This document shows, one piece after another, positions 10,258 to 64,000 of a stretch of 64,000 nucleotides of DNA. Under the pieces are notes generated by a model. That model saw nothing but the letters and a program-made list of their open reading frames with translations. It was not told the origin of the DNA and ran no database searches. The position numbers and the translations under genes are program-made. The DNA is from an uncultured Bacillota bacterium (lineage in GTDB: Bacteria; Bacillota_I; Bacilli_A; RFN20; CAG-288), in contig CASDVP010000005.1 in assembly GCA_949284445.1 (NCBI GenBank), positions 62,001-126,000 on the forward strand, written 5' to 3'. Position 1 is the stretch's first letter; each line of letters opens with the position of its first letter.

Positions 10258-10548
10258 ATGGCAAATATTAAGTCACAACAAAAGCGTATTATCACAAACG
10301 AGAAAAGAAGAATCGCTAATCAAGCATTCAAATCTAGCATGAGAACTGCTATCAAAAAGGTTAGATTAGCTGTTGAAGCTAAAGATTTAGCTGCTGCTGA
10401 AGCTGCTTTACCTGTTGCTGTTTCTTTAATTGATAAATCTGTTCAAGAAGGTATTCAACATATCAATACTGCTAGCCGTCAAAAATCTCATTGCATGGCT
10501 AGTGTTGCTGAGCTCAAAGCTTCTTTAGCTAGTGAGGCTGGCAAGTAA
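10258..10548 (+). CDS. rpsT: 30S ribosomal protein S20
   Basis: A 96-residue, very basic three-helix protein that binds 16S rRNA and helps assemble the 30S body. The N-terminus MANIKSQQKRIITNEKRR and the alanine-rich central helix are typical. TTAGGAG precedes the ATG. It has its own promoter and terminator and is followed by ylmH and the convergent holA; the rpsT/holA neighbourhood is common in Bacillota. Codon choice is clearly biased (many GCT, AAA), as expected for a highly expressed ribosomal gene. Confidence 0.97.
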   Translation: MANIKSQQKRIITNEKRRIANQAFKSSMRTAIKKVRLAVEAKDLAAAEAALPVAVSLIDKSVQEGIQHINTASRQKSHCMASVAELKASLASEAGK

Positions 10549-10580
10549 AATATTGAGAGTTCTCTATACTTTATATATCA

Positions 10581-10608
10581 AGCTATAGTGTCTCACTATA
10601 GCTTTTTT
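10581..10608 (+). terminator. rpsT intrinsic terminator
   Basis: A ten-pair stem AGCTATAGTG/CACTATAGCT with loop TCT, then six Ts. The next gene starts only nine bases beyond. Confidence 0.95.
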
Positions 10609-10616
10609 AAATTTTT

Positions 10617-11405
10617 ATGGATGAGAAAACTAATCTGATCGCGAGATATAAAGATTTGAGCCGAAGAGCGTATTTTCATGAAACTATTCTTCATACGTTC
10701 TTTTTATCTTTGAGTGAACTCAATCTTTTCTATTCGATCTGTTCTTCTAAAGATCGTAACTATCATATGTTTAATAATTCATACTTTGAAGTTTGCGGAC
10801 CTACTACTAATTCTGAACGTAAAATCATCTTGTTTTCGTATCAAAGGCTTTCACTAGAACAGATTAAAGCAATTAAATACGAACTGTTTTCGTGCTTATA
10901 TTTTGAACCGATAAACGCTAAGTTTTCAGATGTTTTAACGCATCGGGATTTTTTAGGTGCCTTGATGCATCTGGGCTTTGAACGAAAAATGTTCGGTGAT
11001 ATTTATATTGAGAATTCTAATGGCTATGTTTATCTTTTTAAAAATATCGAAGATGAAATCGCACGAGATATTTGTAAAGTTAAACATACGCTCATGAAAG
11101 TTAGCTCGGTTCCTTTAGACCAATGTCGATTGATGACGACATTTGTCGATAAGAAAATAACCACATCTTCGTTAAGAATCGATTGCCTTGTCAAAGATGC
11201 TTTTAATCTTTCACGTAAAGAGAGTCAAATGCTATTAGCACAAGAACAAGTTTTCATCAATGATGTCACTATTAAGAATAATAGTCATATCGTAAAAACT
11301 GGAGACATCATAACATTAAGACATCACGGAAAGTTTATTTTTGTAGATACGATCGGAAAGACAAATAAGGGTAGATTGATAGTAAAAATACAAAAATATC
11401 AATGA
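10617..11405 (+). CDS. ylmH: S4-domain RNA-binding protein YlmH (RqcP2-like)
   Basis: A 262-residue protein with the YlmH N-terminal region (ARYKDLSRRAYF..., FSDVLTHRDFLGALMHLGFERKMFGDI around residues 100-127) and a C-terminal S4 RNA-binding domain (SSLRIDCLVKDAFNLSRKESQMLLAQEQVFIND, around 175-210). In Bacillus subtilis YlmH acts in ribosome-associated quality control on stalled 50S subunits. In many genomes it belongs to the cell-division cluster; here it follows rpsT instead. The ATG lies directly behind the rpsT terminator with no SD and no clear promoter, so it is probably made by read-through. Its stop abuts the holA stop base to base. Confidence 0.9.
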   Translation: MDEKTNLIARYKDLSRRAYFHETILHTFFLSLSELNLFYSICSSKDRNYHMFNNSYFEVCGPTTNSERKIILFSYQRLSLEQIKAIKYELFSCLYFEPINAKFSDVLTHRDFLGALMHLGFERKMFGDIYIENSNGYVYLFKNIEDEIARDICKVKHTLMKVSSVPLDQCRLMTTFVDKKITTSSLRIDCLVKDAFNLSRKESQMLLAQEQVFINDVTIKNNSHIVKTGDIITLRHHGKFIFVDTIGKTNKGRLIVKIQKYQ

Positions 11406-12371
11406 TTATCTAAAAGATAAAAAGAATAGCTCTAAGCGCTCGTCAACATTATCGTTGTTGAGTTTGACATCTTTTTCAATATCACCTAGTCGGCATAAGA
11501 TATTCAATAATTGTTGAAAAGAATAGTTCTGAATATCTTTGCGAGTATAATAGATTTTTGCTGATTTTATCTTGGCATTTTTATTGGATAGTTCCGATGC
11601 GATATCATCGTTATTATATCCTTTAGCGATCAAAAATTTTGTCAAAGCCATAAAACGAAACTGGTTAGCTAAAGTAGAGATCATAGAGAGGCCTTCCCAT
11701 CCGTTTTGTCTTAATTCTTGATAGCTATTTAATGCTGATTTTATATTTTTATTTAATAATTTACTAGCTAAATCATATGCTTTATCTTCAAGAGGTTTAT
11801 TAACTAACAATTTTACATCATCAGTTCTAACATGTTTGTTATAAAGGAGCAATTTATCGAGATTGTTGATAAATAAAGAATAGTCACCAGAACAATATTC
11901 ATTCAACAATTTTACAGCGTCGCGATCGATATCACCGCCAGCTTCTTTAGCATGTTTAAATGCTAAGGAAACAAAGTCCTCGTCTCTAAGATCAAAGACT
12001 TCATGGAAATCAGCCGGCAGTTCTTTTAAAGCCTTTACGAGTTCATTTTTTGAATCGAGAGTTCCTGTGACTAAGATATATAAATCGCAATTTGGCTCCG
12101 GATTTTTAAAATAGGATAATAAAGACTTATAGTCTTGATCTTTTTCTTTGATAGGATTTTTATTTCCTTTTGCAGTCGATAGAAAGTAGGCATTCGAAAA
12201 AATGACGGTTTTTCTTTCGCCGAATAAAGAAAGAGAACAGCATTCATTGACTAAATCAGAGACGGTATCTTTATATCCGTCATACTTGATCACTTCAGTT
12301 TTGCTGTTGATCTCGTTATTGACTATTTTCGTGATCAAGCCAGAATCTTTACCGAAGAAAACTTTGATCAT
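11406..12371 (-). CDS. holA: DNA polymerase III subunit delta
   Basis: A 321-residue clamp-loader delta subunit, which opens the beta sliding clamp. The sequence follows the HolA pattern: an N-terminal AAA-like domain without a functional P-loop (MIKVFFGKDSGLI, later SLSLFGERKTVIFSNA near residues 48-63), a lid (DLRDEDFVSLAFKHAKEAG near 127-145) and a C-terminal collar with QNYSFQQLLNILCRLGDIEKDVK near 281-303. It lies seven bases downstream of ppiB and probably shares its transcript. It is convergent with ylmH, and the two stops touch, so no independent terminator is present between them. Confidence 0.92.
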   Translation of the reverse strand: MIKVFFGKDSGLITKIVNNEINSKTEVIKYDGYKDTVSDLVNECCSLSLFGERKTVIFSNAYFLSTAKGNKNPIKEKDQDYKSLLSYFKNPEPNCDLYILVTGTLDSKNELVKALKELPADFHEVFDLRDEDFVSLAFKHAKEAGGDIDRDAVKLLNEYCSGDYSLFINNLDKLLLYNKHVRTDDVKLLVNKPLEDKAYDLASKLLNKNIKSALNSYQELRQNGWEGLSMISTLANQFRFMALTKFLIAKGYNNDDIASELSNKNAKIKSAKIYYTRKDIQNYSFQQLLNILCRLGDIEKDVKLNNDNVDERLELFFLSFR

Positions 12372-12378
12372 TTACTGA

Positions 12379-12882
12379 TTATTTGATTTTAGGATAATCT
12401 TCGATTTTCTCATCGATGACTTCGGCTTTAGTGATAACGACAGGTGTTAATGGCTTGTCATCTTCGTCTTTTGCGACGGAAGCGATTTTATCGACGACAT
12501 CCATACCATCGATAACTTTACCAAAAGCAGCATATTGACCATCTAAGAAAAAATCATTGTTATCACAGATGAAAAATTGTGAACCGGCAGTATCCATCCC
12601 CATAGCTCTAGCCATCGAAATGACGCCTCTTTCATGCTTTAAATGATTTTTCACACCATTTAAAGAAAATTCACCTTTGATTCTAAAGCCAGGACCACCA
12701 GTGCCATTTCCATTAGGATCGCCGCCTTGTATCATGAAATTTTTGATAACGCGATGAAAAGTGAGTCCATCATAAAAGCCTTTAGATGCTAAATAAACAA
12801 AATTTTTGCAGGAAATCGGTGCGTTTTCATAATCTAAACTGATCTTTATATCACCGAAATCTTTGACATGTAGAATTACCAT
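12379..12882 (-). CDS. ppiB: Peptidyl-prolyl cis-trans isomerase, cyclophilin type
   Basis: A 167-residue cytosolic cyclophilin accelerating prolyl isomerisation. The active-site signature FHRVIKNFMIQGGDP (around residues 42-56) with the catalytic Arg, and GVISMARA...AGSQFFI (around 86-106), are intact. No signal peptide is present. AGAGG precedes the ATG. It is first in a ppiB-holA unit; a stable hairpin at 12.9 kb separates it from gpmA. Confidence 0.96.
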   Translation of the reverse strand: MVILHVKDFGDIKISLDYENAPISCKNFVYLASKGFYDGLTFHRVIKNFMIQGGDPNGNGTGGPGFRIKGEFSLNGVKNHLKHERGVISMARAMGMDTAGSQFFICDNNDFFLDGQYAAFGKVIDGMDVVDKIASVAKDEDDKPLTPVVITKAEVIDEKIEDYPKIK

Positions 12883-12896
12883 AAATTACCTCTTTC

Positions 12897-12922
12897 AAAA
12901 AACAGGGACATAGCCCTGTTTT
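12897..12922 (-). terminator. gpmA terminator
   Basis: A nine-pair stem AAAACAGGG/CCCTGTTTT with six-base loop and T-rich flanks. Orientation favours ending the leftward gpmA transcript; it could also work in the other direction. Confidence 0.85.
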
Positions 12923-12930
12923 ATAATTCA

Positions 12931-13680
12931 TTATTTCTTTGCTTTATCTTGATTTTTGACAGCGTTGATCTTAGCTTGGATGGCGCTTTGATCACCAAGA
13001 TAGTAATGTTTGATAGGTTTTAAATCCTCATCTAATTCATAAACGAGAGGAACACCAGTAGGAATGTTTAAGCCCGCGATGTCTTCGTCAGAGATATTAT
13101 CTAAATATTTGACTAAAGCTCTTAAAGAGTTGCCGTGAGCAGCGATCAGAACTTTTTTACCAGCTTTGATTTCTGGAACGATAGTTTCATTATAATAAGG
13201 AACTACACGTGCGATAGTATCTTTTAAAGACTCATGCAAAGGAAGCATTTTAGGATCGATGCCGTTATAGTGAGCTTGTTTTGCAGGATTTCTTTCATCA
13301 TCTGGATCAAGAGCAGGCGGAGCAACGTCGAATGATCTTCTCCACAAATGAACTTGTTCTTCACCATATTTAGCAGCAGTTTCAGATTTGTTCAACCCTT
13401 GTAAAGCACCATAATGTCTTTCATTTAAGCGATAATCTTTGATGACAGGTAAATAATCTTGGTCGATGCCATCTAAGACATGCCACAAAGTGTGGATGGC
13501 TCTTTTTAAAACAGAAGTGAAAGCAATATCGAAAGAATAGCCTTCATCTTTTAATAACTTACCAGCGGTTTTGGCTTCTTGAACACCTTTTTCAGATAGA
13601 TCAACATCAGTCCAGCCAGTGAAAAGATTTAATTTGTTCCATTCACTTTCACCATGGCGGATGAGTACTAATTTAGTCAT
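12931..13680 (-). CDS. gpmA: 2,3-bisphosphoglycerate-dependent phosphoglycerate mutase
   Basis: A glycolytic enzyme interconverting 3- and 2-phosphoglycerate through a phosphohistidine. At 249 residues it is the dPGM length. The catalytic motif [10 protein letters not shown] contains the phospho-accepting His (residue 8 region), with [11 protein letters not shown] near 85-95 and the second His in [11 protein letters not shown] near 180-190. AAGGAG precedes the ATG, and a TATAAT at 13711-13716 offers a promoter with weak -35. It is a single-gene unit between the Pit operon and ppiB. Confidence 0.97.
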
Positions 13681-13734
13681 GATTAAACTCTCCTTATATT
13701 TCCAAAAGATATTATAATCGGATTTAAAATAAAT

Positions 13735-14373
13735 TTATAGATTTTTGTACATGATAATTTCTATCGTTTTGGTGACATCGCGGCATTTATCAGTGATATA
13801 TTCAAACATGCCATAAATATCTTCAGCTTCACGAACTTCAGATCTTTGGAATTTATCGGGTTCTATATAATAAGCACGGACATTCTCTTCGTATAAGTGA
13901 TCGGTTTGTTCTTCGATATTGCGCACTTTTTCGATGAGAGGATCCATCAATTTCTTATTGGTCAGACTATTTAAATTTTTCAGTAATTCATTGACAGCAT
14001 TCACACCAGCAACAGCTTGCTGTAAAAATAGTTCGGTATTGTTTGGTAATTGTTTATAGTTTCTTAAATACATCTTATAAGAGACTTCATCGATAGAATC
14101 AGTCAAATCATCGATATTATCTAATAACATGAATATATCTTCCCTATCGATAGGTGTCATAAACTCTTTAGCGAGTCTCTCTTCCGTGTCATGCTTGATC
14201 AAATCTGCAGCATGCTCGATCTCATGAACATCATTTTTTAATGTTAATAAATCAGTGCTTTCAAGCTTTTCAATTCCTTCTTGAAGCTTTTCGATAGCTT
14301 TGACAGAATAAGAGCCAACAGTTGCGAATTGTTCGAAGAAATAATTTGTTTTATTCTTTTTAAATAACCCCAT
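13735..14373 (-). CDS. DUF47 (PhoU-like) partner of the phosphate permease
   Basis: A 212-residue all-helical cytoplasmic protein of the DUF47/PhoU-like family. Features are the N-terminal FFEQFATVG..., the HEIEHAADLIKHDTEERLAKEFMTPIDREDIFMLLDNIDDLTDSIDEV core (around residues 46-93), rich in acidic and His residues, and a repeat of similar helices in the C-terminal half. Members are encoded beside Pit permeases and are thought to tune phosphate or metal-phosphate uptake. It starts 14 bases after the permease stop with AAGGA upstream, so it is translated from the same message. Confidence 0.9.
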   Translation of the reverse strand: MGLFKKNKTNYFFEQFATVGSYSVKAIEKLQEGIEKLESTDLLTLKNDVHEIEHAADLIKHDTEERLAKEFMTPIDREDIFMLLDNIDDLTDSIDEVSYKMYLRNYKQLPNNTELFLQQAVAGVNAVNELLKNLNSLTNKKLMDPLIEKVRNIEEQTDHLYEENVRAYYIEPDKFQRSEVREAEDIYGMFEYITDKCRDVTKTIEIIMYKNL

Positions 14374-52121: not shown

Positions 52122-52733
52122 AAAATATTCCTTTCTTTATTTTTAATATAATCGTGTATAATTTGCAGTTATATAAAGAGAAGAACCAATTGTTATTTTT
52201 AAGATATCACTAGTTGAGTTTCCTTGCAAATATGTGTATTAATGGTTTCATATGTATTTTATAATCCGAAAAAATTTATTTGAAGAAATTATGATAGGTC
52301 GATAATGTCATTAATTTAAGATGACATAAATGCAAATGAGTTATAAAAGGGCTGCAACATAGCTTCGAGCAATTGCCGATATTTTGTTACAGCCCTATTA
52401 AGTTCAATAATATCGGGACAATGAGACATTTTAAATCCAAATGCTAGTTATATAATCTCAATTTATGTGATTTTATGCAATAAATAAACTCAATTTTAAT
52501 TACTAAATAAATATATTTTAGTGACATTTGTTATATCCAAACACCAAAACTGCACCATAGTTTTTGCCAAACAATTAAGTCTAAAATTCATAATTGAATG
52601 GTATACAATTCAAATATAAAAAAGTCGATAAATTTGGGAATATTTCTACTTAAAATCCTAACTTTATTGACATAATTACATAAAGAAATAAACTCTAAAT
52701 TAGGGCTACATATTCAAATAACGGAGGTGTTAA
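52122..52733. other. Non-coding boundary stretch with a terminator-like hairpin
   Basis: About 610 A+T-rich bases. AGGGCTGCAACA (52348-52359) and TGTTACAGCCCT (52385-52396) form a twelve-base stem with one mismatch, with TTTTAT following on the minus strand, so it resembles a leftward terminator although no leftward gene precedes it. TTGACA at 52667-52672 may be the -35 for the DUF4417 gene but no good -10 is seen. The hairpin may be a remnant of an insertion element. Confidence 0.5.
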
Positions 52734-53408
52734 TTGAAAAATCAAAACTATGTTCTTAAAAAGGATTTCTTTAAATCTTTTTATTTTAAAGGAGATAAAT
52801 TAGCTGAACCATATGGTTTTCCTAAATTAGAAGCTGTAAAACCTCAAATAGTCGAGGGAATCATGCCATTCAATATCTTGATGAGCAATTCGAGGCGAAA
52901 TGTTTGGATGCATTTTTTTATTGATGATTATCAATTTGAAAGAGTGTATCAGACGCCTACAAAATATCTTACACTCTTTCAAAACGTTAAAGGAATCATA
53001 ACACCTGATTTTTCTCTATATGCAGATTTACCCAAAGCAATTCAAATCTATAATTGCTATAGAAATAGAGCAATAGCGCGTTATTTACAAAAACTTGGAT
53101 TAAATATCATTCCAAGTGTAAGTTGGAGCGATGTAACTAGCTATGGTTGGTGCTTTAGTGGAATTGAAAAGCACTCTGCAGTAGCTATTTCTACTAATGG
53201 ATGTTTTCAATCAAAAGAAACATTAGAAGCTTTTATAAAAGGATATCTAGCAATGTGTGACGTAATAAAGCCAAAACAAATCATTCTTGTTGGCAAAGTT
53301 CCTAAAGAGTTACAAAACAATTTACTAATAAATGCTTTTCCTAATCATAGTATGGAAATAAACAGAAAAAAAGGGGGAATTAAATGGGAGGAAGAGGAGC
53401 TACACTAG
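52734..53408 (+). CDS. DUF4417-type protein
   Basis: 224 residues starting at a TTG with GGAGGTG six bases upstream. The pattern matches DUF4417: VEGIMPFNILMSN, HFFIDDYQFERVYQTPTKYLTLFQNVKGIITPDFSLYADLP (around residues 60-100), NCYRNRAIARYLQKLGLNIIPSVSW (around 106-130) and ISTNGCF. The family has no established activity and is frequent in phages and other mobile elements. It overlaps the next gene by 25 bases. Low G+C and isolation from host operons support a transferred cassette. Confidence 0.8.
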   Translation: MKNQNYVLKKDFFKSFYFKGDKLAEPYGFPKLEAVKPQIVEGIMPFNILMSNSRRNVWMHFFIDDYQFERVYQTPTKYLTLFQNVKGIITPDFSLYADLPKAIQIYNCYRNRAIARYLQKLGLNIIPSVSWSDVTSYGWCFSGIEKHSAVAISTNGCFQSKETLEAFIKGYLAMCDVIKPKQIILVGKVPKELQNNLLINAFPNHSMEINRKKGGIKWEEEELH

Positions 53409-54190
53409 CAGGTCAGCACACTAAAAGCAAAGATAATATAAAGATTAAAATAGGTGGAAGATTAAAAAAAGATCAGATAGCTGTCAATTGGAACGATCCA
53501 GTGACGTTCTATGAGAATGATATGTATGACAAGCTAAAAGAAAAAGGTTTTTCTACAAGAGCTTCAACAGACATTGTTGATGAAACAACAATTGCAAGGC
53601 AACAAAGACAAATTGATAGGCTAGCTACAGAATATAATAGTGTATATAGAAATGTAACCAAAGATAATGAAATTATGTTTGGCACTGAACATGTAAAATC
53701 AGTCAAGGGTAAGCCTTTGCCAAATATTTGGGGCTATTGTGCTGTTGCTGTAAAAGAAGATGGTAAGCCTATTCAAAAAGTAGTATTAAATCTAAAACAA
53801 TTAGAAAGAACTGCTAATGAACAAGTTGTGTCTGTTAGATCAGGTATAAAGGAAAAGCATTTTGTTTCTATTGATTTAGATAAATCTAGAGAATATGTTA
53901 TCACTCATGAAATGGGGCATGCTTTAGAAAATAGCTTGGTAGCACAGATAACAGCTACAAATAAACAAGATTTTATGGACAATTATGATAAGACATTAGC
54001 TAAAATTAAACATGATGTAGTTGATTTAGCAAATAAGAAGTATAATGGATGTGACATTTATCTTTCAAAATACTCTAGCCAAAATGATGCTGAGTGGTTT
54101 GCTGAGACGTTTACTAATTTAAAGTTATCTAAAAATCCTGCACCGATTGCTAAAGCTTTAGGAGAATACATAGAGAGGTATAAAAAATGA
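53384..54190 (+). CDS. Phage-type zincin metallopeptidase
   Basis: 268 residues. The N-terminus MGGRGATLAGQ is characteristic of phage and mobile-element proteins. The zinc motif THEMGHALE (His175, Glu176, His179) and a downstream NDAEWFAETF (around 234-243) supplying a probable third Glu ligand mark a gluzincin-like peptidase related to the C-terminal domains of phage head-morphogenesis-associated proteins. No signal peptide. GGGGGA inside the preceding gene serves as ribosome site. The target is unknown; it could process a phage protein or act on the host. Confidence 0.75.
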   Translation: MGGRGATLAGQHTKSKDNIKIKIGGRLKKDQIAVNWNDPVTFYENDMYDKLKEKGFSTRASTDIVDETTIARQQRQIDRLATEYNSVYRNVTKDNEIMFGTEHVKSVKGKPLPNIWGYCAVAVKEDGKPIQKVVLNLKQLERTANEQVVSVRSGIKEKHFVSIDLDKSREYVITHEMGHALENSLVAQITATNKQDFMDNYDKTLAKIKHDVVDLANKKYNGCDIYLSKYSSQNDAEWFAETFTNLKLSKNPAPIAKALGEYIERYKK

Positions 54191-54630: not shown

Positions 54631-54906
54631 TTATCGTGTTGTCTTTTTAGGATTGTATGATTGCTTAGATTTAACAGTATTCTTATTAGTTCCTATCTTC
54701 CAAGGCCAAATTGGTGGATATTTCTTCCCTAATGCTTTCATCAATGTAGCATACCACCACCAAAACAAAAGGAAATATGGTATTTCTAAGAGAATAGCAC
54801 AAACCCATCTTAAGACCTGTTTAAGAGCAGGAAACCAAACAGATAAAACAGCTAAAACTACTCCAATAACTAATAGGACAATAACTACAATTGCAAAACC
54901 ATTCAT
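54631..54906 (-). CDS. 91-residue membrane protein related to the tail of the large exported protein
   Basis: Two hydrophobic stretches (around residues 3-24 and 30-52), then YFLLFWWWYATLMKALGKKYPPIWPW and a basic Lys-rich tail. The arrangement and the WWW-A-K-A-G-P-IW spacing match the last 75 residues of the protein encoded at 55695-57527. GGAGGATAAAA precedes the ATG. In a filamentous phage, a short membrane protein with a basic C-terminus could be a coat component, but the long distance from the N-terminus to a cleavage site does not fit a standard major coat protein. Function unknown. Confidence 0.7.
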   Translation of the reverse strand: MNGFAIVVIVLLVIGVVLAVLSVWFPALKQVLRWVCAILLEIPYFLLFWWWYATLMKALGKKYPPIWPWKIGTNKNTVKSKQSYNPKKTTR

Positions 54907-55069
54907 TTTTATCCTCCATCATAATAGTGTTTTTAACTTCTACAACGTAATTTAATAGTTTCCTTTATTTCACCTCCATATTGATTTAAATATTGTCTTG
55001 ATCTAAAATACTATTGCGTTGAATGTTCTATTCCAGTTAGCTGTATTCTAGCAATTAGATTTCTTTTTA

Positions 55070-55157
55070 TTGACTTTTTATCTTTTAAGGATTATCCTAA
55101 TATTACTAGGTGACCTACTCCGTTAAGCTGTGTGGCAGCAGGTTAGGTCACCTTTTT
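55070..55157 (+). other. Hairpin with plus-strand T tail, possible small RNA
   Basis: A ten-pair stem AGGTGACCTA/TAGGTCACCT (55108-55117 with 55144-55153) encloses a second hairpin GCTG-TGTGG-CAGC and ends in TTTTT on the plus strand, just beyond the stop of the leftward operon. TTGACT (55070-55075) and TATCCT (55093-55098) with 17-base spacing make a weak rightward promoter. It could be a short plus-strand RNA, a blocker of antisense transcription or a single-strand phage signal. Confidence 0.4.
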
Positions 55158-55698
55158 ATTTTTTATGCTTGCTTTGGGTTTTAATTTTTCTTCGCCGCTT
55201 AGATCTTGCTTTCTGAAATTTTTTGTTAGGTGCTTCTGTATAATTATTTGGTTCAGTTTCCCATTTTTCAATTGCTTTGATTAACAATTTCTTATCTGAC
55301 TTACTTAGACTATAGTTTTGATATTTTTTTCTTTTTTTGTAAGTGGTGGCTTTTTTATCAACGATTTCATGAATGACATATGCTTTTTTTAATCTAGTCC
55401 ATGGATTTATATCGTATTTTAATTCTATAGGATTCTTTTTCTTTCTCATTACTGGTTCATGGCTTATAGATACTGATTTTAAATGTTTATTCCCATATTC
55501 GTCATAATATTTGTCATAAACTATATGTGGATGAACCCCTTGATGTGCAGAAAGATTTCCTCTAACAATAAAGTCATATTTCTTTGTAGGCTCAGGTTTA
55601 TCATTTTGCTTAATTCTTTCTGAACGTTTATAAAGATGAATAATGCCAACTATAGATACAATCACGAAGATTGATAATATTACTAATGCAATTATCAT
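55156..55698 (-). CDS. TM-anchored basic protein, unknown function
   Basis: 180 residues: an N-terminal membrane helix (around 2-24), a soluble part with HPHIVYDKYYDEYGNKHLK (around 57-75) and a very basic C-terminus (QKARSKRRRKIKTQSKHKK). It starts in a four-base overlap with the stop of the preceding 610-residue gene. One membrane helix with a strongly positive tail is a form seen in DNA-contacting virion or morphogenesis proteins, but no family is recognised. Confidence 0.65.
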   Translation of the reverse strand: MIIALVILSIFVIVSIVGIIHLYKRSERIKQNDKPEPTKKYDFIVRGNLSAHQGVHPHIVYDKYYDEYGNKHLKSVSISHEPVMRKKKNPIELKYDINPWTRLKKAYVIHEIVDKKATTYKKRKKYQNYSLSKSDKKLLIKAIEKWETEPNNYTEAPNKKFQKARSKRRRKIKTQSKHKK

Positions 55699-57527
55699 TT
55701 TTTCTTGCTAAACAACCAGATAGATGGTGCTTCTTCACCTTGTGCTTTCTTGATGATAGCTAACCACCACCATACTAAGAGAACATAAACGATATCAATC
55801 ACTAATTCGACGATGAATAACAAACCTTTAAATATCCAGGTTATAACCTTTAAAACAGGTTCAAAGATCATAGCTAAGATAACTAAGACTACTAATGCTA
55901 CAATCAAGAATACCCACGAATATTGTTTAAAGAATTGAACTATATCATTAGTTATGAAATCCCATAAGCTAGGCGCAGGCATGCCTATTAAATAAGCATT
56001 CCTTGTTGTTAATGGATCATGTATGGTTCTGATATCAAACACTTTGTTATTCTGAACTACTTTCATGCCTAATGTCACTGTTCCATAGAGCTCATGACAT
56101 TCAGTAGTTTTAATAAAGACAGTTGTACTACCAGTTCCCCCATCTGGAAATGCTCTAACAACTTGTGGTTCTTCATCGATAGATCTGACTAATGAATCTG
56201 CTTCTATTGCATAGGCGAACTTATAATTTATATGATCATCAGAAGTGACGAATTGTTTAAATGCTTCCCAACTCTCTTTTTCATCTTTAGATGCATCTTC
56301 ATCAGGTGAATAGCTATCTATATTTTGAATATCTACAATCATCGGAACTTTATATTTCTTAGTAATAGTATAATGTTGCCATAAATCATCATTATCGTAT
56401 TGCTCTTCAAAAGAGACAACTTCATTTTTAGTGACACCATTTAATGAATAACTAGTGCCATCTTCAGCATAACTAGTATATGTATATTCTTGTCCTAATA
56501 TATCATGAAGCGTATAACTGATTTTTGATATATTGCTATATGTATCTCGATAAACTGATGGGTCTGGTGATTTAGAAATCTCACCCATCACGCTTCCCAA
56601 AGTATAGGTGAAAGCCGTATAGTCTAATACATTCGTATGCCAATAAACTTCTTTGATTTCATCTGGTTTAAAAGTTTCATCTTTGAAATTAAAGAAAACA
56701 TAGAAAATTTCTTTAGCTTCATTAAGCTTTTCATCTTGTTTTGTATGAAGAAAATAAAAAATCGTTGAAGCACCACTAGCTTCATAAGCTTCTGAATGTG
56801 TTGGTGCTAACCATAGATCTTGAACTGCTTCTAATTCATATGTGTCTTCTGAATAGTAATTAAAAAGTGCATTCTCTTCTTTACAATTATTATCATACAA
56901 GAGCTCATATTCGTTATCTGTGCCGAAATCATAAGTTTTGTCACTAACACTATCTGGTGTTAACACTCTCAATGTTCTTGGTTTGAATCTATATGTTTCT
57001 TCAGAGCTTTCTATTGCTACATAATTCGGGATTGTAAACTTATAATAATAACCTTTAGATCCACTATAAAAATTAATTAAATCAAGCTGTGAAGTTTTTA
57101 TTACATCATTTTCATATCCAGTGCCATCATCTTTTATCTCTGAAGCGTTGTAATAATCCAAAGAATAAGAATATGTGCACGATTTATAGTCATATATTTT
57201 GTTTTCATTCAACTGACAATCATCAATTCTATCTGCTGAATATAGATATAAATACAACTGATTCACACCATTTGGAAGAGTTCCTAAATACTTATATGAC
57301 GTCTCTTCACCTAACTTTCCTTGTGGAGTTATTGAATCGATATCAAAATTTCTATATTCTTCATCAGATACATGTCCATCTTTATTAGCATCACCATAAA
57401 GAACTGCTAAGTCATAATAAACATTTGTTCTAGCTATATCATAAGGTGAATCATATGATGCATATTTAGTTATTGGAGTGCCGATAGCTAAGCCTAATGT
57501 TATTCCTAATAATATTCTATTCATCAT
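55695..57527 (-). CDS. Large exported protein with EF-hand-type loop and membrane tail
   Basis: 610 residues. An N-terminal signal-like segment (around 3-20) is followed by DANKDGHVSDEE (46-57), a full calcium-binding EF-hand/dockerin-type loop with acidic residues at positions 1, 5 and 12. A long Tyr/Asp/Ser-rich extracellular region continues to about residue 510, then two strong membrane helices (around 515-540 and 550-580) and the tail VWWWLAIIKKAQGEEAPSIWLFSKK. It overlaps both neighbours by four bases. It may be a structural or adsorption protein of the element; no known full-length family recognised. Confidence 0.7.
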   Translation of the reverse strand: MMNRILLGITLGLAIGTPITKYASYDSPYDIARTNVYYDLAVLYGDANKDGHVSDEEYRNFDIDSITPQGKLGEETSYKYLGTLPNGVNQLYLYLYSADRIDDCQLNENKIYDYKSCTYSYSLDYYNASEIKDDGTGYENDVIKTSQLDLINFYSGSKGYYYKFTIPNYVAIESSEETYRFKPRTLRVLTPDSVSDKTYDFGTDNEYELLYDNNCKEENALFNYYSEDTYELEAVQDLWLAPTHSEAYEASGASTIFYFLHTKQDEKLNEAKEIFYVFFNFKDETFKPDEIKEVYWHTNVLDYTAFTYTLGSVMGEISKSPDPSVYRDTYSNISKISYTLHDILGQEYTYTSYAEDGTSYSLNGVTKNEVVSFEEQYDNDDLWQHYTITKKYKVPMIVDIQNIDSYSPDEDASKDEKESWEAFKQFVTSDDHINYKFAYAIEADSLVRSIDEEPQVVRAFPDGGTGSTTVFIKTTECHELYGTVTLGMKVVQNNKVFDIRTIHDPLTTRNAYLIGMPAPSLWDFITNDIVQFFKQYSWVFLIVALVVLVILAMIFEPVLKVITWIFKGLLFIVELVIDIVYVLLVWWWLAIIKKAQGEEAPSIWLFSKKK

Positions 57528-58090
57528 AATTCTATGCTCCCAAATAACTTCTGATGGTAAACATTAGCCACATTCATCGTTAATTGTTCACCTGTTTCTG
57601 ATATCGTGGATACAGATATAGCTACTCCGCTTCTGTTCCAAGATACTGGTAATGAAACACAAGGCTCATCTGTATTTAATAAACCCATAGACGTAAAGAA
57701 ACTGATGCTTCCACCATCATCAAAGAAATCTGATATAGAATCATAGATAGAATTTTTAATGACCTCTGGTGCTACATCATAAAAGCCTGCTTTCATACCG
57801 AAACTATTCTGATCAGTTGATAGACTTGTATCTAGAGTCCCGGAACTTAAATTAACAAAAAAATCATAACCATGTTCTTTATGTTGTTCACCAGGTTGTA
57901 AGATATCAACATATAGAAAATGATCATATCTATATCCTGTTGCTACATCTTGAGAATATGGATATCCGCCTATATACAGCTTGCTTTTATCGATCTCTTC
58001 TTGGAGGATACTATCGCAAGAACTTAAACTGAACAGGCTTAATGAGCTCATCAAAGCTATTATCATCTGCTTTAATTTCATTTTCTTCAC
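57524..58090 (-). CDS. Lipoprotein of unknown function
   Basis: 188 residues with a signal peptide ending in the lipobox SLSSC (Cys25). The mature part is beta-rich (GYRYDHFLYVDILQPGE, GYDFFVNLSSGTL) with SISDFFDDGGSISFFTSMGLL near residue 118. AAGGAG-like GAAAGGAGTG precedes the ATG. Its stop overlaps the start of the 610-residue gene, so the two are coupled. No family recognised; an envelope-anchored partner of the exported proteins is inferred. Confidence 0.7.
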   Translation of the reverse strand: MKKMKLKQMIIALMSSLSLFSLSSCDSILQEEIDKSKLYIGGYPYSQDVATGYRYDHFLYVDILQPGEQHKEHGYDFFVNLSSGTLDTSLSTDQNSFGMKAGFYDVAPEVIKNSIYDSISDFFDDGGSISFFTSMGLLNTDEPCVSLPVSWNRSGVAISVSTISETGEQLTMNVANVYHQKLFGSIEL

Positions 58091-58144
58091 TCCTTTCTTT
58101 TAGATAAAGAGAGGGGAGTTTTATTCTCCCCTCCAAAAGGATTC

Positions 58145-59563
58145 TTATTTATTAATACTTGAAGAATCTTCTATCTCTGGTGTACTACTAGAATTAGGAA
58201 CTTCTTCTTCGGGTTCTTCTGCAAATCTTAAGTCCCATTCATAATCAGTGATCCAGCAATCAAACTTGAACTTAGTGAACACTCCTCTAAACCAGTTTTT
58301 AAAACATTGCCAGAATTTAGTCCAACCAGAAAGTTCATCATCTGGATTTACTGCATTTCTTCCTTCAGTTACCCTAATTGTTAAATTATCATTTTTTGTT
58401 CCAATACTTTGATCATCGTTAAGATAATTCACTTGATAATTTACCTTGTAACTTCCAACAGATGTTGGATTCTCTTGATAATCGGTATCATCCAATAAAA
58501 CTGATGTGACATTTAATTCTGGATATAATCCATAAGTGATAATTGATTGAATTTGTGAAGAAGTTAAAGGAGCATCTGAAGTTGCGCTAACTAATGTGGA
58601 AGAAAGAACAAACACAGGTGGCAAATCCGCTGACACAGTGACATGTGCTACAAATTCACCTTTGTTTCCACCCGTATCAGTACAAACAACTTTCACATCA
58701 CATGCACCAACTTTTGTTGGGATAAATTCACCTTCAATTTCTAATTGTAAACTCTCACTTGAATCGACATTATCTGTCACGGCAAAGAGATCTAAAAAGT
58801 CTTCTTGTGACAGATTTAACACCTTTGATAATCCGATCATGATATTACCATCTCCACCATCTTTCATAGTGATGATCGGTGCTTGAGTATCTCTCACTGA
58901 AACTTGAAACTCTTGTGTTGCTGCATTTCCAGAACTATCTGCCACTGTCACATTTAATCTATGATTGCCTACATCGAAAGCTGACCACACTTTATCTTCT
59001 ATTAATGGTTCGCCATCTAATGTATATGTTGGAGAGCCGATTGTACCACCGTGATCTGTACCATTATCTGTGATTGTGAAATATTCAGAAATTTTATCAA
59101 ATTCTAATGTATCACCGGTCGAAAAGACAAAGGACTTTGAAGGAGCTAAAGCAATTATTGGGTTTACGATATCTATAACATGAATCTCTAAATAAGCAGT
59201 TGAACTTTGCAAGTATTTATCAGTAGCAGTGATAGTGATTGTATAAACACCTAACTTTGTTTCATCGTATTTAGCTTTTTCTTCTTCAGTGCATTTTACT
59301 TCGACATCTACACCTAATAAATCTTCAGCAGAAACATTAGCTAAAATCTGATCGATAGTCCAAGGATCATCCACATTGACATAGATTTCTGCTGTTTCAC
59401 CATCTTCTAATTCACCATCTTCACCATCATTTGCACGCAATACATTTGCTCTTTTTGAATCAACTGTAGGCTTGAAGCTCATCTGATCATGACTTGTTAA
59501 GCCATTAATAGAACATAGTGTTGACATGAGACCTAATAACATCATCGTTTTAATTTGTTTCAT
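58145..59563 (-). CDS. Exported Ig-like repeat protein B with Trp/Cys-rich tail
   Basis: 472 residues from the ATG at 59563 (AAGGAGGAAAT upstream; a nine-codon extension is unsupported). Signal peptide (around 1-22), then three or four cadherin/HYR-like beta modules, seen in repeated D-GNAATQEFQVSVRDTQAPII and D-GGNKGEFVAHVTVS patterns. The last region contains W-KFWQCFKNWFRGVFTKFKFDCWITDYEW (around 415-445), then an acidic Ser-rich end. It is a paralogue of the following-upstream 667-residue protein. Such Ig-like chains usually bind surfaces or glycans. Confidence 0.75.
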   Translation of the reverse strand: MKQIKTMMLLGLMSTLCSINGLTSHDQMSFKPTVDSKRANVLRANDGEDGELEDGETAEIYVNVDDPWTIDQILANVSAEDLLGVDVEVKCTEEEKAKYDETKLGVYTITITATDKYLQSSTAYLEIHVIDIVNPIIALAPSKSFVFSTGDTLEFDKISEYFTITDNGTDHGGTIGSPTYTLDGEPLIEDKVWSAFDVGNHRLNVTVADSSGNAATQEFQVSVRDTQAPIITMKDGGDGNIMIGLSKVLNLSQEDFLDLFAVTDNVDSSESLQLEIEGEFIPTKVGACDVKVVCTDTGGNKGEFVAHVTVSADLPPVFVLSSTLVSATSDAPLTSSQIQSIITYGLYPELNVTSVLLDDTDYQENPTSVGSYKVNYQVNYLNDDQSIGTKNDNLTIRVTEGRNAVNPDDELSGWTKFWQCFKNWFRGVFTKFKFDCWITDYEWDLRFAEEPEEEVPNSSSTPEIEDSSSINK

Positions 59564-59598
59564 CGATTTATTTCCTCCTTTATAAAACAAACTTAATA

Positions 59599-61602
59599 CT
59601 ACTCACCAAATCTTACTTTCCATTCAGAGTCTGTTATCCAACAATCAAATTTGAATTTGGTGAAAACACCTCTGAACCAATTGCAAAAGCATTGCCAAAA
59701 TTCAACCCACCAATTACAAAATTTTTCCCATCCATTCATCTCTTCATGAGCATTTTCAGCATTATCAGAAACTACCATTGTAAAAGTATCATTTTCACTT
59801 TTTATAATTCCATTTGCTTCATATGTGAATGAATAATTAATAGGATAGTTTCCCTTTTTTGTAGCATTCTTTTGATATTCAGTATCATCAACGACAACTG
59901 TTCTCAATTCTTTATCAGGTTGCAGAGCTTTCATAATAACTGTTTTTACTTCCCCACTTGATAATGGCTGTTTAGCTGATGCCGAAACTAAAGTGCTAGA
60001 CAAAACAAAAACAGGCGGTAAATCACTATCAACAATCACATGAGAGATTAAGCTTCCTTTATTATTAGCTGAATCAGTACAAGTGATAGTGATGTCATAT
60101 TCACCTACTGTTGTCGGTATAAATGTACCTTCGATCTGTAATTTTAAATTATCTGAAGAATCATGATTATCAGTCGCAGAAAACAACATCAAAAAATCAT
60201 CTTCGGTCAAATTGAGAAGTCTTGATAATCCAACAATTAAATCATTTGTGCCACCATCTCTCCTTTTGATCACAGGAGCCGTTATATCATGAACTATAAG
60301 ACTATAGCTTTCAGTTGTTGAATTTCCTGCGCTATCAGATGCTATAACTTTTAATACATGATCACCGCATTCTTCACTGCTAAATGTTTTATCATCTACA
60401 AGAGCTTCATCATCGATGTAATAAGCAACATTTTCTAAATTATTGCTATCATCAGTAACTAAAATATACTCATCAATCGAAGAAACTGAAATTGTTTCTC
60501 CTTCATTAAAAGTTAAATCTTTAAGAAGTTGAATCGTAGGTGAAATCGTATCTTTGACAATGATTTCTAGCCAAAAATTAACATCATATGTATCTTCATA
60601 AGAGGTCTTAAATAGCAAATCATATGTTCCAGGTGTAGAAGCATCATAAATACCCTCATAATCAGGTAATAATTGTGGAGCGGTAAAGATAGCTGCTGAA
60701 TATTTACATGATATATATTGCTTTCCTGTAACCTTATCTAAAATTGTATTGATATCTGGATATTCATTAACACCAGCTTCAAAAACAATAGGCGGTTGAT
60801 TCCATCCTAAATGATTTCCTGTTTGCTTGTTATAGAAAATATTATTATAGAATCCCATATAAACAGGAACTTCACCACTTAAAATATCTTCTCCTTTAAC
60901 AGAATTTCCATACGAATCTTGAATATAGATTTCGCCGAGCTGCTCCAATACTCGATTTCCAGAACCATCAACGTCATCATAAAAATCCTGGATATTGCCG
61001 AGAATGGTAGTAGGGCAAAGATTGTTTATTCTATTTTCTAAAACATTATTGCCATAATTGTATCCCTGAAAAGGAAACTCAAATGGAATATCTTTATCCC
61101 AATCTGGCTGATTATATGATGTTCTAGAAAACCCATAATAATCATCTCCTGAATATACAGGAGTGTCCCAAGGATGAAACTTATTATCTCCTATGGAAAT
61201 AAAAAAATAAGTATATTCGTCAACATAATTATCGAGAATAGATTTGATTGCAAATAATTCATCAGGAGTGTCTTCTTCCTCAGGATGATTAAAACCGACC
61301 TTATAAGGTGTTAGTGTTTCATCATATCCAGGATATGAAGACAATCTTCTAGAAGGTGCAGAAAAGATTTCTCTAAAATTATTAAGCTCATCACCAGATA
61401 ATACAGTCAACTCAAAATCATAGGAAGTATCTGGGGCAGGAATATTATTCTCATCAGTGATGGATTCGAAACTTCTATTACTTATTTTTTTTAGTGAAGT
61501 AAAAGTAGTAGCTATAGTAGAAGTTCTAGGACTCGCTTGTGCTATACTAGTCATCGATAGTGCTGATATGGCTAATACTATCTTTTTACTAATTTTATGC
61601 AT
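59599..61602 (-). CDS. Exported Ig-like repeat protein A with Trp/Cys-rich tail
   Basis: 667 residues: signal peptide (around 1-24, cleavage after SIAQAS likely), a unique N-terminal region of about 330 residues (Tyr/Pro/Asp-rich), then Ig-like modules closely similar to protein B (SPTIQLLKDLTFNEGETISV..., DSAGNSTTESYSLIVHDITAPVI, DLPPVFVLSSTLVSA) and the tail W-EFWQCFCNWFRGVFTKFKFDCWITDSEW. AAGGAGGTG precedes the ATG at a slightly long distance. The unique head suggests receptor or adhesin function; the shared tail suggests that both attach to the same structure. Confidence 0.75.
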   Translation of the reverse strand: MHKISKKIVLAISALSMTSIAQASPRTSTIATTFTSLKKISNRSFESITDENNIPAPDTSYDFELTVLSGDELNNFREIFSAPSRRLSSYPGYDETLTPYKVGFNHPEEEDTPDELFAIKSILDNYVDEYTYFFISIGDNKFHPWDTPVYSGDDYYGFSRTSYNQPDWDKDIPFEFPFQGYNYGNNVLENRINNLCPTTILGNIQDFYDDVDGSGNRVLEQLGEIYIQDSYGNSVKGEDILSGEVPVYMGFYNNIFYNKQTGNHLGWNQPPIVFEAGVNEYPDINTILDKVTGKQYISCKYSAAIFTAPQLLPDYEGIYDASTPGTYDLLFKTSYEDTYDVNFWLEIIVKDTISPTIQLLKDLTFNEGETISVSSIDEYILVTDDSNNLENVAYYIDDEALVDDKTFSSEECGDHVLKVIASDSAGNSTTESYSLIVHDITAPVIKRRDGGTNDLIVGLSRLLNLTEDDFLMLFSATDNHDSSDNLKLQIEGTFIPTTVGEYDITITCTDSANNKGSLISHVIVDSDLPPVFVLSSTLVSASAKQPLSSGEVKTVIMKALQPDKELRTVVVDDTEYQKNATKKGNYPINYSFTYEANGIIKSENDTFTMVVSDNAENAHEEMNGWEKFCNWWVEFWQCFCNWFRGVFTKFKFDCWITDSEWKVRFGE

Positions 61603-61746: not shown

Positions 61747-63075
61747 CTATTTTTTAGATTTCTTAGTTATAGTTTCTTTTTCTCCTTGTTGGTTTCGTTT
61801 CTTTAAGACTCTACTTGCTAAGTCATCTTCTGTAATTGCTTTAGGTTCATCTGTGAGCTTCCATCTAGACTTTTGGATGAGCATCTTTTGTACAGAATGA
61901 AATTGAAAAGTGTTAGTGCTTCCTCGACAATACTTGATAGGTATCACTGCTCTTAAAGCATCCACTGTATCTGAAGTGATTCTAGTTTTCCCAAAGTCGT
62001 TAGTATCATGATATATGCGACCAAGGAAGAGAACATATGAGTGAGATGCTACACATTTTTTTAAGTTGTAGATTTTACCAAGGAAGTCACGACTTTTAGA
62101 ATTTACCAAGTATGCTTCATAGCCTTTCTTTTTCTTTTTGAACCAAAGATTAATTCTAGCTGGAATAGTGATTAAATTAAGATAGAACATTGCTGTGAAA
62201 TGTGGATTGATTGCAATAGATTTTCTCATAGCTACAATTTCTGTCGCTAAATCTCTTTCACGATTGATATCTGTCCCCCAGTATTGATTAGTTGTTGTGT
62301 AATAGATAGTTTCTTGACCTAGTTGACCGATAAGACGCATACAATCAGCAGCTCCAGAATCTTGTTTTGAATATTGCCAGAATGTTGTACAATCCTTACC
62401 CGATAATTGTTTTTCATCTTCACAAATAATCGAATAGGGAAGCAAGTGATAATCTTGAAGTTTATCAGAATCTTTTTTATCTGGATTAAGTGCACAATCT
62501 TTTATATTCAACATTTCAGGTGAGTAATCCATAGCATCGTTATTGGTTATCCATGAGTGAAAAGCTTTGCCGTAGTAATAAACATAATTATTTCTCATCA
62601 AAGCCCATCTAGCATCAATATAATCAGCAAGTAATGAAAGAAATGGGACAGGTTTTGCAGAAAGATGATTGTCATAACTCAAATTAGCATAAGCAGCTAA
62701 AAGCGAGCCATCGGCAAGCAGTTTTTTAGCTTCTGTGTATGAATCAATGTATCCTTGCTCAAAATCCTCTACAAGCCTCTTTTCAATACAATCGAAGGGA
62801 ATTTGTGGAAAAGCTAGACAAATGAATTTTATTTTTAATAGTGCCCGTTTGATTAAATCTTTTGTTCTGATATTAGCATATCCTGCTTGAAATGTGGTTT
62901 TACCGGACCGAACTTTACCAGTGATATAAACTAAGTAACGCAAATGATTGCAAAGAAACTTTTCAGTTCTTCTGCTAGAGCCTCGAAGTAATAAATAATA
63001 GACTAATTCAACAATCCAAGGCACAATTAATAGAGCTAAAAAAATACAAAGAATTACAATAGAAGCTATTGACAT
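61747..63075 (-). CDS. Membrane-anchored P-loop ATPase, pI/Zot-like
   Basis: 442 residues. A membrane helix (around 4-30) is followed by Walker A GKVRSGKT (53-60) in RYLVYITGKVRSGKTTFQAG, a long helical insert, Walker B YSIICEDE (214-221) and RLIGQLGQETIYYTTTNQYWGTDINRE (247-273), which resembles the sensor/arginine region after Walker B. A second hydrophobic stretch lies near 293-312 and a Lys-rich tail ends the protein. The ITGKxxSGK-T start and the DE box are features of filamentous-phage assembly ATPases (pI, Zot). VirD4/FtsK-like coupling proteins are the alternative. It is the key protein for identifying the element. Confidence 0.6.
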   Translation of the reverse strand: MSIASIVILCIFLALLIVPWIVELVYYLLLRGSSRRTEKFLCNHLRYLVYITGKVRSGKTTFQAGYANIRTKDLIKRALLKIKFICLAFPQIPFDCIEKRLVEDFEQGYIDSYTEAKKLLADGSLLAAYANLSYDNHLSAKPVPFLSLLADYIDARWALMRNNYVYYYGKAFHSWITNNDAMDYSPEMLNIKDCALNPDKKDSDKLQDYHLLPYSIICEDEKQLSGKDCTTFWQYSKQDSGAADCMRLIGQLGQETIYYTTTNQYWGTDINRERDLATEIVAMRKSIAINPHFTAMFYLNLITIPARINLWFKKKKKGYEAYLVNSKSRDFLGKIYNLKKCVASHSYVLFLGRIYHDTNDFGKTRITSDTVDALRAVIPIKYCRGSTNTFQFHSVQKMLIQKSRWKLTDEPKAITEDDLASRVLKKRNQQGEKETITKKSKK

Positions 63076-63127: not shown

Positions 63128-63439
63128 TAAAGTTGATGATTAAGGCTTAAAAAACCTTTTATTTATGGGCTTTTTTTATTTTTAGATATATACCATTCAT
63201 TTTTTAAAAAATGATTAGAATTTAAAAAATCCGTATTTGTTTCCTTAATAGCAAAAAAAATTTCAAGACGAATATCACTATTAAATGAAATAGTCAATTA
63301 TTTTTTGTTTGAGATTGGATTACTCGCGCGCATACGCGCAATATTAATAATCTTTTTATAAAAGATATATAAAAAAGATATTTAAAAAGATATTTATACT
63401 AGGAAAATAAAGAGGGATTCTAAGGGGGAAAAAGAGGGG
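63128..63439. other. A+T-rich non-coding stretch beside the iterons
   Basis: No gene is visible. At 63334-63347 a short GC-rich palindromic hairpin occurs (GCGCG-CATA-CGCGC). Behind it GATAT recurs after A runs at 63364, 63377 and 63389, 12-13 bases apart, in an almost purely A/T segment (63350-63400), the sort of sequence that unwinds at replication origins. Confidence 0.5.
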
Positions 63440-63519
63440 TGCAATATTTTGCATCACCTAGTGCAATATTTTGCACCAAGTAGTGCAATATTTTGCATTT
63501 GCAAGTGCAATTTTTTGCA
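63440..63519. repeat. Four 22-bp-spaced palindromic iterons
   Basis: TGCAATATTTTGCA at 63440, 63462 and 63484 and TGCAATTTTTTGCA at 63506 start exactly 22 bases apart (two helical turns). Each is itself a near-palindrome (TGCAAnA/TnTTGCA), and each is preceded by G. Spacers of eight bases differ. This is the layout of iterons bound by a plasmid or phage Rep protein at an origin; an operator array for the neighbouring regulator is the alternative. Confidence 0.75.
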
Positions 63520-63543
63520 CATGGAGATTATAACTAAATTATT

Positions 63544-63753
63544 TTACAGATATGCGAAAAGGTAGTCGTTAATATATTTTTTTGTAAATGTGCATAATCC
63601 AAAGCTATCATTTTTCGTATAAGATACATAATCCCCATAGAAAAAATACTTACCAAATTAACCCGTTGGTGGATTCTCTTCTTTATTGCATGAACTACAT
63701 AAAAAGAAAGAACCTATGACCAAACAACCTAAAAATTTAATCACTTTGTTCAT
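63544..63753 (-). pseudogene. Decayed lipoprotein gene, copy 2
   Basis: The ATG at 63753 opens a lipoprotein signal with a proper lipobox (FLCSSC, Cys22) and then NKEENPPTG followed by TAA. The same frame continues as FGKYFFYGDYVSYTKNDSFG..., matching copy 1 (FIDYTFYEDYVTY) at eight of 13 positions across the stop, so the stop is probably a mutation. It ends at 63544 without the C-terminal membrane part. GGAG lies in the end of the regulator gene upstream. A genuine 31-residue lipoprotein cannot be excluded. Confidence 0.6.
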
Positions 63754-63758
63754 ATTAT

Positions 63759-64000
63759 CTATTTCTCCTTTGTTTGGTAAGTCGAATTTACTTGAACGTT
63801 ATTATTATCACCCTTTACCTTGATATCAACAGGATTTATACCAGATAAGACTTGATTTAAGAGCTTATTAGCTTGTACCAAATCTTCATATTGTTTTCTA
63901 GAAATTATTACTAAATCTTCATTCTTTGCCCCTAATAATTGATTGATTGAAATCCCATAAAAATTAGCTAAATCAATGAGTGTCCCACAATCTGGTTCAC
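63759..64000 (-). CDS. XRE-family regulator, C-terminal part (cut by the right edge)
   Basis: 80 codons of a protein starting beyond the right edge. EPDCGTLIDLANFYGISINQLLG is the last helix region of a Cro/CI-type helix-turn-helix domain, followed by a helical linker with RKQYEDLVQANKLLNQVLSG and a polar tail ending DNNNVQVNSTYQTKEK. It ends six bases before the lipoprotein remnant and shares its ribosome site. Position next to the iteron region makes it a candidate repressor of the mobile element; the DNA-recognition helix is outside the window. Confidence 0.8.
   Translation of the reverse strand, partial: EPDCGTLIDLANFYGISINQLLGAKNEDLVIISRKQYEDLVQANKLLNQVLSGINPVDIKVKGDNNNVQVNSTYQTKEK

What the first reader, a model, noticed from the sequence alone, without database searches (positions are those of the whole stretch)
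63330..63519. Iteron origin: four palindromic repeats at exact 22-bp period beside an A+T-rich direct-repeat stretch
Identical 14-base cores on the same face of the helix, each two turns apart, next to GATAT repeats 12-13 bases apart and a short GC palindrome. This is the layout of Rep-controlled origins in plasmids and phages and supports that the element replicates autonomously.
Basis: partly seen in the sequence, partly recalled or inferred. Interest (0 to 1): 0.7.

Follow-up and report, generated by a model that had tools for sequence, protein, structure and literature searches.

The report
Iteron replication origin, detached from initiator
The four evenly spaced palindromes are very probably the replication start site of a 16-kb mobile element sitting in a bacterial tRNA gene, and they match the sites that a family of phage replication-starting proteins normally carries inside their own genes; here the site has moved 2.3 kb away from that gene.

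Summary
Four 14-bp palindromes (three identical, the fourth one base off) lie at exactly 22-bp period (63440-63519). Next to them is the least stable 60 bp of the whole element, with GATAT repeats 12-13 bp apart, and then a GC palindrome. The array occurs nowhere else in the genome.

The window edge cuts a 16,351-bp element integrated in tRNA-Pro between 27-bp att repeats. Just right of the window it encodes a 166-aa winged-helix protein of a phage replication-initiator family. Most genes of that family carry 2-6 palindromic ~22-bp iterons inside (or abutting) the initiator gene, followed by A+T-rich repeats. In two relatives the half-sites (TGCAA/TTGCA) are nearly those of the window. In a sister element with a 68%-identical ATPase the same intergenic place holds three palindromes of another sequence, again at 22 bp. 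In the window and the sister the initiator gene has no internal array: the origin has moved out. Five more distant ATPase relatives carry rolling-circle Rep genes and no such array.

Best reading: a theta-type iteron origin of a filamentous-phage-like integrative element, a new variant of a known kind. Binding and autonomous replication are not shown.

The parts
63440..63519 (.). iteron array: four TGCAA-N4-TTGCA palindromes at 22-bp period (63440, 63462, 63484, 63506)
63402..63439 (+). purine-rich tract between iterons and A+T-rich block; a purine-rich tract on the corresponding strand also lies beside the array of L020
   Evidence: sequence
63341..63401 (.). A+T-rich unwinding element with GATAT repeats (63364, 63377, 63389); least stable 60-mer of the element
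63326..63339 (.). GC palindrome GCGCG-CATA-CGCGC at the far end of the origin; similar palindromes follow the in-gene origins of L069 and L093
63589..63597 (-). DnaA-box consensus match TTATGCACA; a weaker one, TTTTGCACA, overlaps iteron 4 (63513-63521, +)
63759..64000 (-). XRE/HTH_19 repressor, 120 aa; the gene runs to 64121, beyond the window
61747..63075 (-). membrane P-loop ATPase (pI/Zot-like in layout only), first gene of the morphogenesis-like operon downstream of the origin region
54631..61602 (-). secreted/membrane proteins of the element (667, 481, 188, 610, 180, 91 aa), two with Ig-like domains
52734..53408 (+). DUF4417 protein of the element
52400..52426 (+). attL, 27 bp identical to attR at 68751-68777 (beyond the window, in the 3' end of tRNA-Pro)

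Best explanation
The array is the initiator-binding part of a theta-type replication origin of a 16.35-kb integrative element. Inferred mechanism: after excision at the tRNA-Pro att sites, dimers of the 166-aa winged-helix initiator (gene at window coordinates 65752-66252, outside the window) bind the four palindromic iterons on one face of the helix. They open the adjacent A+T-rich block (63341-63401), perhaps helped by DnaA at TTATGCACA (63589), and recruit the host helicase and primase. In relatives this origin lies inside the initiator gene. Here, and in a sister element, it has moved to the intergenic region upstream of the ATPase operon, and the initiator gene has lost the origin-coding segment and the C-terminal domain. 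Shown: anatomy, uniqueness, family membership of the initiator, and the same architecture in homologues and in the sister element. Inferred: binding, strand opening, theta mode, autonomous replication.
For: (1) Iterons, A+T-rich block and GC palindrome lie in order; the A+T-rich block is the least stable in the element. (2) The 166-aa protein and its L020 homologue match phrog_6969 (2.4e-10, 7.5e-9) and, weakly, replication-initiation families; longer homologues match replication initiation O-like, DnaD-like loader and HTH_36 models. In MT836321.1 the homologue lies between SSB and a DnaB helicase. The model's best PDB matches include an N-terminal DNA-binding-protein domain, initiator, Rep-DNA and DnaD N-terminal structures (4pql, 4pt7, 5kbj, 2v79; E 5e-3 to 1e-2). 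(3) In 9 of 15 homologues the gene, or the DNA directly 3' of it (L091), holds at least 2 like palindromes at 16-27 bp, against 14 of 601 control windows (Fisher p about 1e-10; 2e-9 after removing a near-duplicate); the others show looser repeats by eye. (4) L094 and MT836321.1 carry TGCAA..TTGCA-type iterons inside the gene. (5) The window and L020 initiator genes lack internal arrays, while L020 has 3x TAGTGAC-N6-GTCACTA at 22 bp at the syntenic intergenic site. (6) Five ATPase loci with Rep_trans (L021, L022, L070, L072, L073) lack arrays, and neither G000 nor G016 encodes a Rep_trans protein.
Against: No binding or replication data. The initiator is only 166 aa and lacks the usual C-terminal domain. 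Fold matches are not significant on their own (none at E<=0.001). An array upstream of an operon could also be regulatory, and 2-copy GTGCAACTTGTTGCAC pairs at 22 bp occur before a small gene in proteobacterial phages. The detached layout rests on two elements.
Confidence: 0.85

Rival explanations
1. The array is an operator: the XRE repressor (or another regulator) binds it to silence the ATPase operon in the integrated state.
For: It sits 3' of the XRE gene and about 365 bp upstream of the ATPase gene in the same orientation, as in L020. A 2-copy version of the motif lies before a small gene in unrelated phages. The XRE genes of the two elements are very different (23% identity), as are the arrays.
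Against: No TGCAA half-site lies in the XRE gene's own divergent promoter. A different candidate operator (TGTATCTTAT / TATCATTTTT) recurs there and at 63606-63628. Arrays track the initiator family, not XRE genes. The regular 3-4 copies next to the least stable DNA fit an origin better.
Confidence: 0.1
2. Rolling-circle origin and/or packaging signal of a filamentous phage: the palindromes act as hairpins in single-stranded DNA.
For: ATPase relatives use Rep_trans rolling-circle initiators, and the region is the large intergenic region.
Against: No Rep_trans protein in G000 or G016. A strict 22-bp period with changed arm sequence in L020 suggests helical phasing of protein sites rather than hairpins. 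The 5-bp stems are weak. Elements with Rep_trans lack such arrays.
Confidence: 0.05
3. Partition centromere (parS/parC-like) array.
For: Arrays of regular repeats also serve as centromeres of plasmids and phage-plasmids (general knowledge).
Against: No ParA/ParM/TubZ-like gene was recognised among the element proteins scanned. The homologous arrays lie in initiator genes.
Confidence: 0.03

Closest known systems
Phage lambda O protein / ori-lambda (PMC7466680)
   Same: four palindromic iterons bound by a phage initiator, followed by an A+T-rich unwinding tract
   Different: ori-lambda lies inside gene O and lambda has a P helicase loader; here the origin is 2.3 kb from the initiator gene, the initiator is 166 aa, and no loader was recognised
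RepA_N / pPR9-type plasmid initiators (pSK41 Rep boxes; pPR9 N-domain pfam13730; PMC5703833)
   Same: winged-helix N-terminal domain with fold matches to initiator and Rep-DNA structures and HTH_36 in homologues; about four semi-palindromic boxes; many homologues keep the origin within the gene
   Different: no direct RepA_N or HTH_36 match for the window protein; C-terminal domain absent; origin outside the gene
PLE satellite of Vibrio phage ICP1 (RepA_N initiator, origin in a separate noncoding region; PMC7145576)
   Same: integrative element with a DnaD/RepA_N-fold initiator and an iteron origin in a noncoding region away from the initiator gene
   Different: different initiator family and integrase type; this element carries its own ATPase/secreted-protein operon and no helper phage is known
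Inoviruses of monoderm hosts (Propionibacterium phage B5, Paulinoviridae)
   Same: structural genes, then ATPase, then Rep order in the element's relatives
   Different: no rolling-circle Rep in this element; the ATPase aligns with pI only around the Walker A motif; 16.35 kb is large

Membership tests
iteron-type theta origin (general) | several directly repeated initiator boxes of about 17-22 bp | tested here: met
   4 boxes at 22 bp
iteron-type theta origin (general) | adjacent A+T-rich unwinding element | tested here: met
   least stable 60-mer of the element starts at 63342
iteron-type theta origin (general) | initiator encoded on the same element | tested here: met
   166-aa winged-helix initiator homologue between the att sites
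iteron-type theta origin (general) | initiator binds the boxes and drives replication | not testable with these tools
   needs gel shift and mini-replicon assay
phage O-like / HTH_36 in-gene-origin initiators | N-terminal winged-helix domain of the family | tested here: met
   phrog_6969 2.4e-10; shares the GWM...L..NEL..YA motif with 16 homologues
phage O-like / HTH_36 in-gene-origin initiators | iterons inside the initiator gene | tested here: not met
   window and L020 genes have none; array is 2.3 kb away; met in most relatives
phage O-like / HTH_36 in-gene-origin initiators | C-terminal domain (Phg_2220_C or other) for helicase/primase contact | tested here: not met
   166 aa, no C-terminal family match
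RepA_N plasmid initiators (PF06970) | match to the RepA_N Pfam model | tested here: not met
   no RepA_N hit at E<1
Inoviridae/Tubulavirales | pI/Zot assembly ATPase | tested here: inconclusive
   no Pfam hit; hhalign aligns only around the Walker A motif; weak Zot matches in a structure search
Inoviridae/Tubulavirales | rolling-circle Rep (or equivalent) | tested here: not met
   no Rep_trans in the genome; present in five ATPase-bearing relatives
XRE operator array | like sites at the repressor's own promoter | tested here: not met
   none in 64122-64258

The most novel reading that the evidence does not exclude
A filamentous-phage-like element has given up rolling-circle replication for a lambda-like iteron origin that has been moved out of its initiator gene. 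It would have to make its packaged DNA some other way, or package double-stranded DNA.
Probability: 0.35. Interest if true: 0.7.

Novelty: new variant of a known kind. Interest (0 to 1): 0.45.

Why it matters
It shows a replication origin that in relatives sits inside its initiator gene becoming a separate module, with box sequence that differs between close relatives while period and layout are kept. It also suggests that elements with an inovirus-like morphogenesis operon swap rolling-circle initiators for theta-type ones: L074, with the same ATPase family, has a protein close to the phage replisome organiser domain. That makes a question testable: can a filamentous-like element be propagated without rolling-circle replication?

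Tried and rejected
Viral-contig searches with the ATPase found no relative. The ori DNA has no match in plasmids or phages and the ATPase none in phage records. The 2x TGCAA-N4-TTGCA pattern in IMG/VR gave only proteobacterial phages with a 2-copy pair before a small gene: treated as a rival lead, not a relative. DUF4417 was considered as a Rep: only a domain of unknown function, reported fused to ParB-CTPase domains in phages, so not supported. Zot/pI membership of the ATPase was tested with Pfam, hhalign to B5 Orf8 and M13 pI, and a fold search: inconclusive. A terminator-like hit inside the array reflects the palindromes. An A+T palindrome array in L095 (14282) is away from the initiator gene and was not counted as support.

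Full report
Observation. GATAT recurs at 63364, 63377 and 63389, and GCGCG-CATA-CGCGC lies at 63326-63339. The pattern occurs only here in the 1.47-Mb assembly. None of 60 simulated 64-kb windows gave an array of three or more like palindromes at any period of 19-26 bp. The block beginning at 63342 is the least stable 60-mer of the element. A DnaA-box match TTATGCACA lies at 63589 on the minus strand.

The element. The window is C5:62001-126000 of its assembly. Reading past its right edge shows an integrated element bounded by an exact 27-bp repeat at 52400 and 68751 (16,351 bp). These are the only two copies in the genome. The right copy lies in the 3' end of a tRNA-Pro gene. It encodes a tyrosine integrase, an XRE repressor, DUF4417, a leftward operon of a membrane ATPase plus secreted proteins, and a rightward operon that includes a 166-aa winged-helix protein.

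The initiator. The 166-aa protein matches phrog_6969 (2.4e-10) and weakly a replication-initiation family. Longer homologues from viral contigs match replication initiation, O-like, DnaD-like loader and HTH_36 models. In MT836321.1 the homologue sits between an SSB and a DnaB-type helicase. An AlphaFold model (mean pLDDT 74, N-terminal part mostly above 75) has as best PDB matches an N-terminal DNA-binding-protein domain, initiator, Rep-DNA and DnaD N-terminal structures (4pql, 4pt7, 5kbj, 2v79), with E 5e-3 to 1e-2, so suggestive only.

The decisive comparison. Family members carry their origin in the gene. Right after the winged-helix segment come 2-6 palindromic boxes at about 18-24 bp, then A+T-rich repeats such as AATAATATAGATAATA. 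L069 and L093 then have a GC palindrome (GCGCGCACGCGCG) like the one in the window. A strict detector finds at least two like boxes in 9 of 15 homologue gene regions and in 14 of 601 control windows (p about 1e-10; 2e-9 after dropping one near-duplicate). Boxes in L094 (TGCAACAATTGCA) and MT836321.1 (TGCAAAAATTGCA) are close to the window's box read towards the A+T-rich side (TGCAAAATATTGCA). In L091 the boxes lie just 3' of the gene. The window gene and the sister gene have none.

The sister element. G016 (L020) has a 68%-identical ATPase and the same gene order, with diverged small genes (27-40%) and an unrelated-looking XRE (23%). Between its XRE and ATPase genes lie three TAGTGAC-N6-GTCACTA boxes at 22 bp, beside a pyrimidine-rich tract and A+T-rich DNA. 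Period and place are kept; the box sequence is not. L020 ends at a contig end, so half of this element is unseen.

Relatives with other replicons. More distant ATPase relatives carry Rep_trans rolling-circle proteins (L021, L022, L070, L072, L073) and no such array. L074 has a protein near the phage replisome organiser domain (2e-4, just under Pfam's cut-off). G000 and G016 encode no Rep_trans protein.

Alternatives. An XRE operator is the main rival. Against it, the array motif is absent from the XRE gene's own promoter, where a different repeated motif (TGTATCTTAT / TATCATTTTT) recurs together with a copy near 63606-63628. A rolling-circle origin or packaging hairpin is unlikely for lack of a Rep and because the 22-bp period is kept. 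A centromere has no partner gene among the proteins scanned.

Known systems. ori-lambda has four iterons and an A+T-rich tract inside gene O (PMC7466680). pSK41 Rep has four boxes within rep, and the pPR9 Rep N-domain is a phage-type pfam13730 domain (PMC5703833). The PLE satellite has an initiator of this fold with its origin in a separate noncoding region (PMC7145576). Inovirus replication genes are known to be exchanged often (PMC6813254). The window element works like these. It differs in the detached origin, the short initiator and the ATPase operon. Its place among inoviruses is not established.

Limits. No binding, copy-number or excision data. The detached arrangement is seen in two elements only, and homologues of the initiator are 18-31% identical to it. 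The looser in-gene repeats of six homologues were judged by eye, not by the detector.

Noticed in passing
L093 (G002:C28) 10507-14249; also L091 12547-14200 and L094 7769-9490: Initiator gene with in-gene (or abutting) iterons directly followed by a tyrosine integrase; in L093 two copies of the pair stand 2,271 bp apart in tandem, suggesting very small initiator+integrase integrative elements.
   Followed up: partly
window 53384-54190: 268-aa protein of the element with a HEMGH-type motif and weak metallopeptidase matches.
   Followed up: no
window 63606-63628 and 64125-64150: Shared 10-mers TGTATCTTAT (inverted) and TATCATTTTT near the array and in the XRE divergent promoter: candidate XRE operators.
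   Followed up: partly
L080 4051-4088, L081 2681-2718, L082 10027-10064: Proteobacterial phage contigs with two GTGCAACTTGTTGCAC-type palindromes 22 bp apart before a small gene.
   Followed up: partly
L075 5961-8667 and 16503-19209: ATPase and integrase genes present twice about 10.5 kb apart: apparent tandem integration of a related element.
   Followed up: no
L074 18128-18943: ATPase-bearing relative with a Phage_rep_org_N-like protein (2e-4) instead of Rep_trans: possibly a second theta-type replacement in this group.
   Followed up: partly
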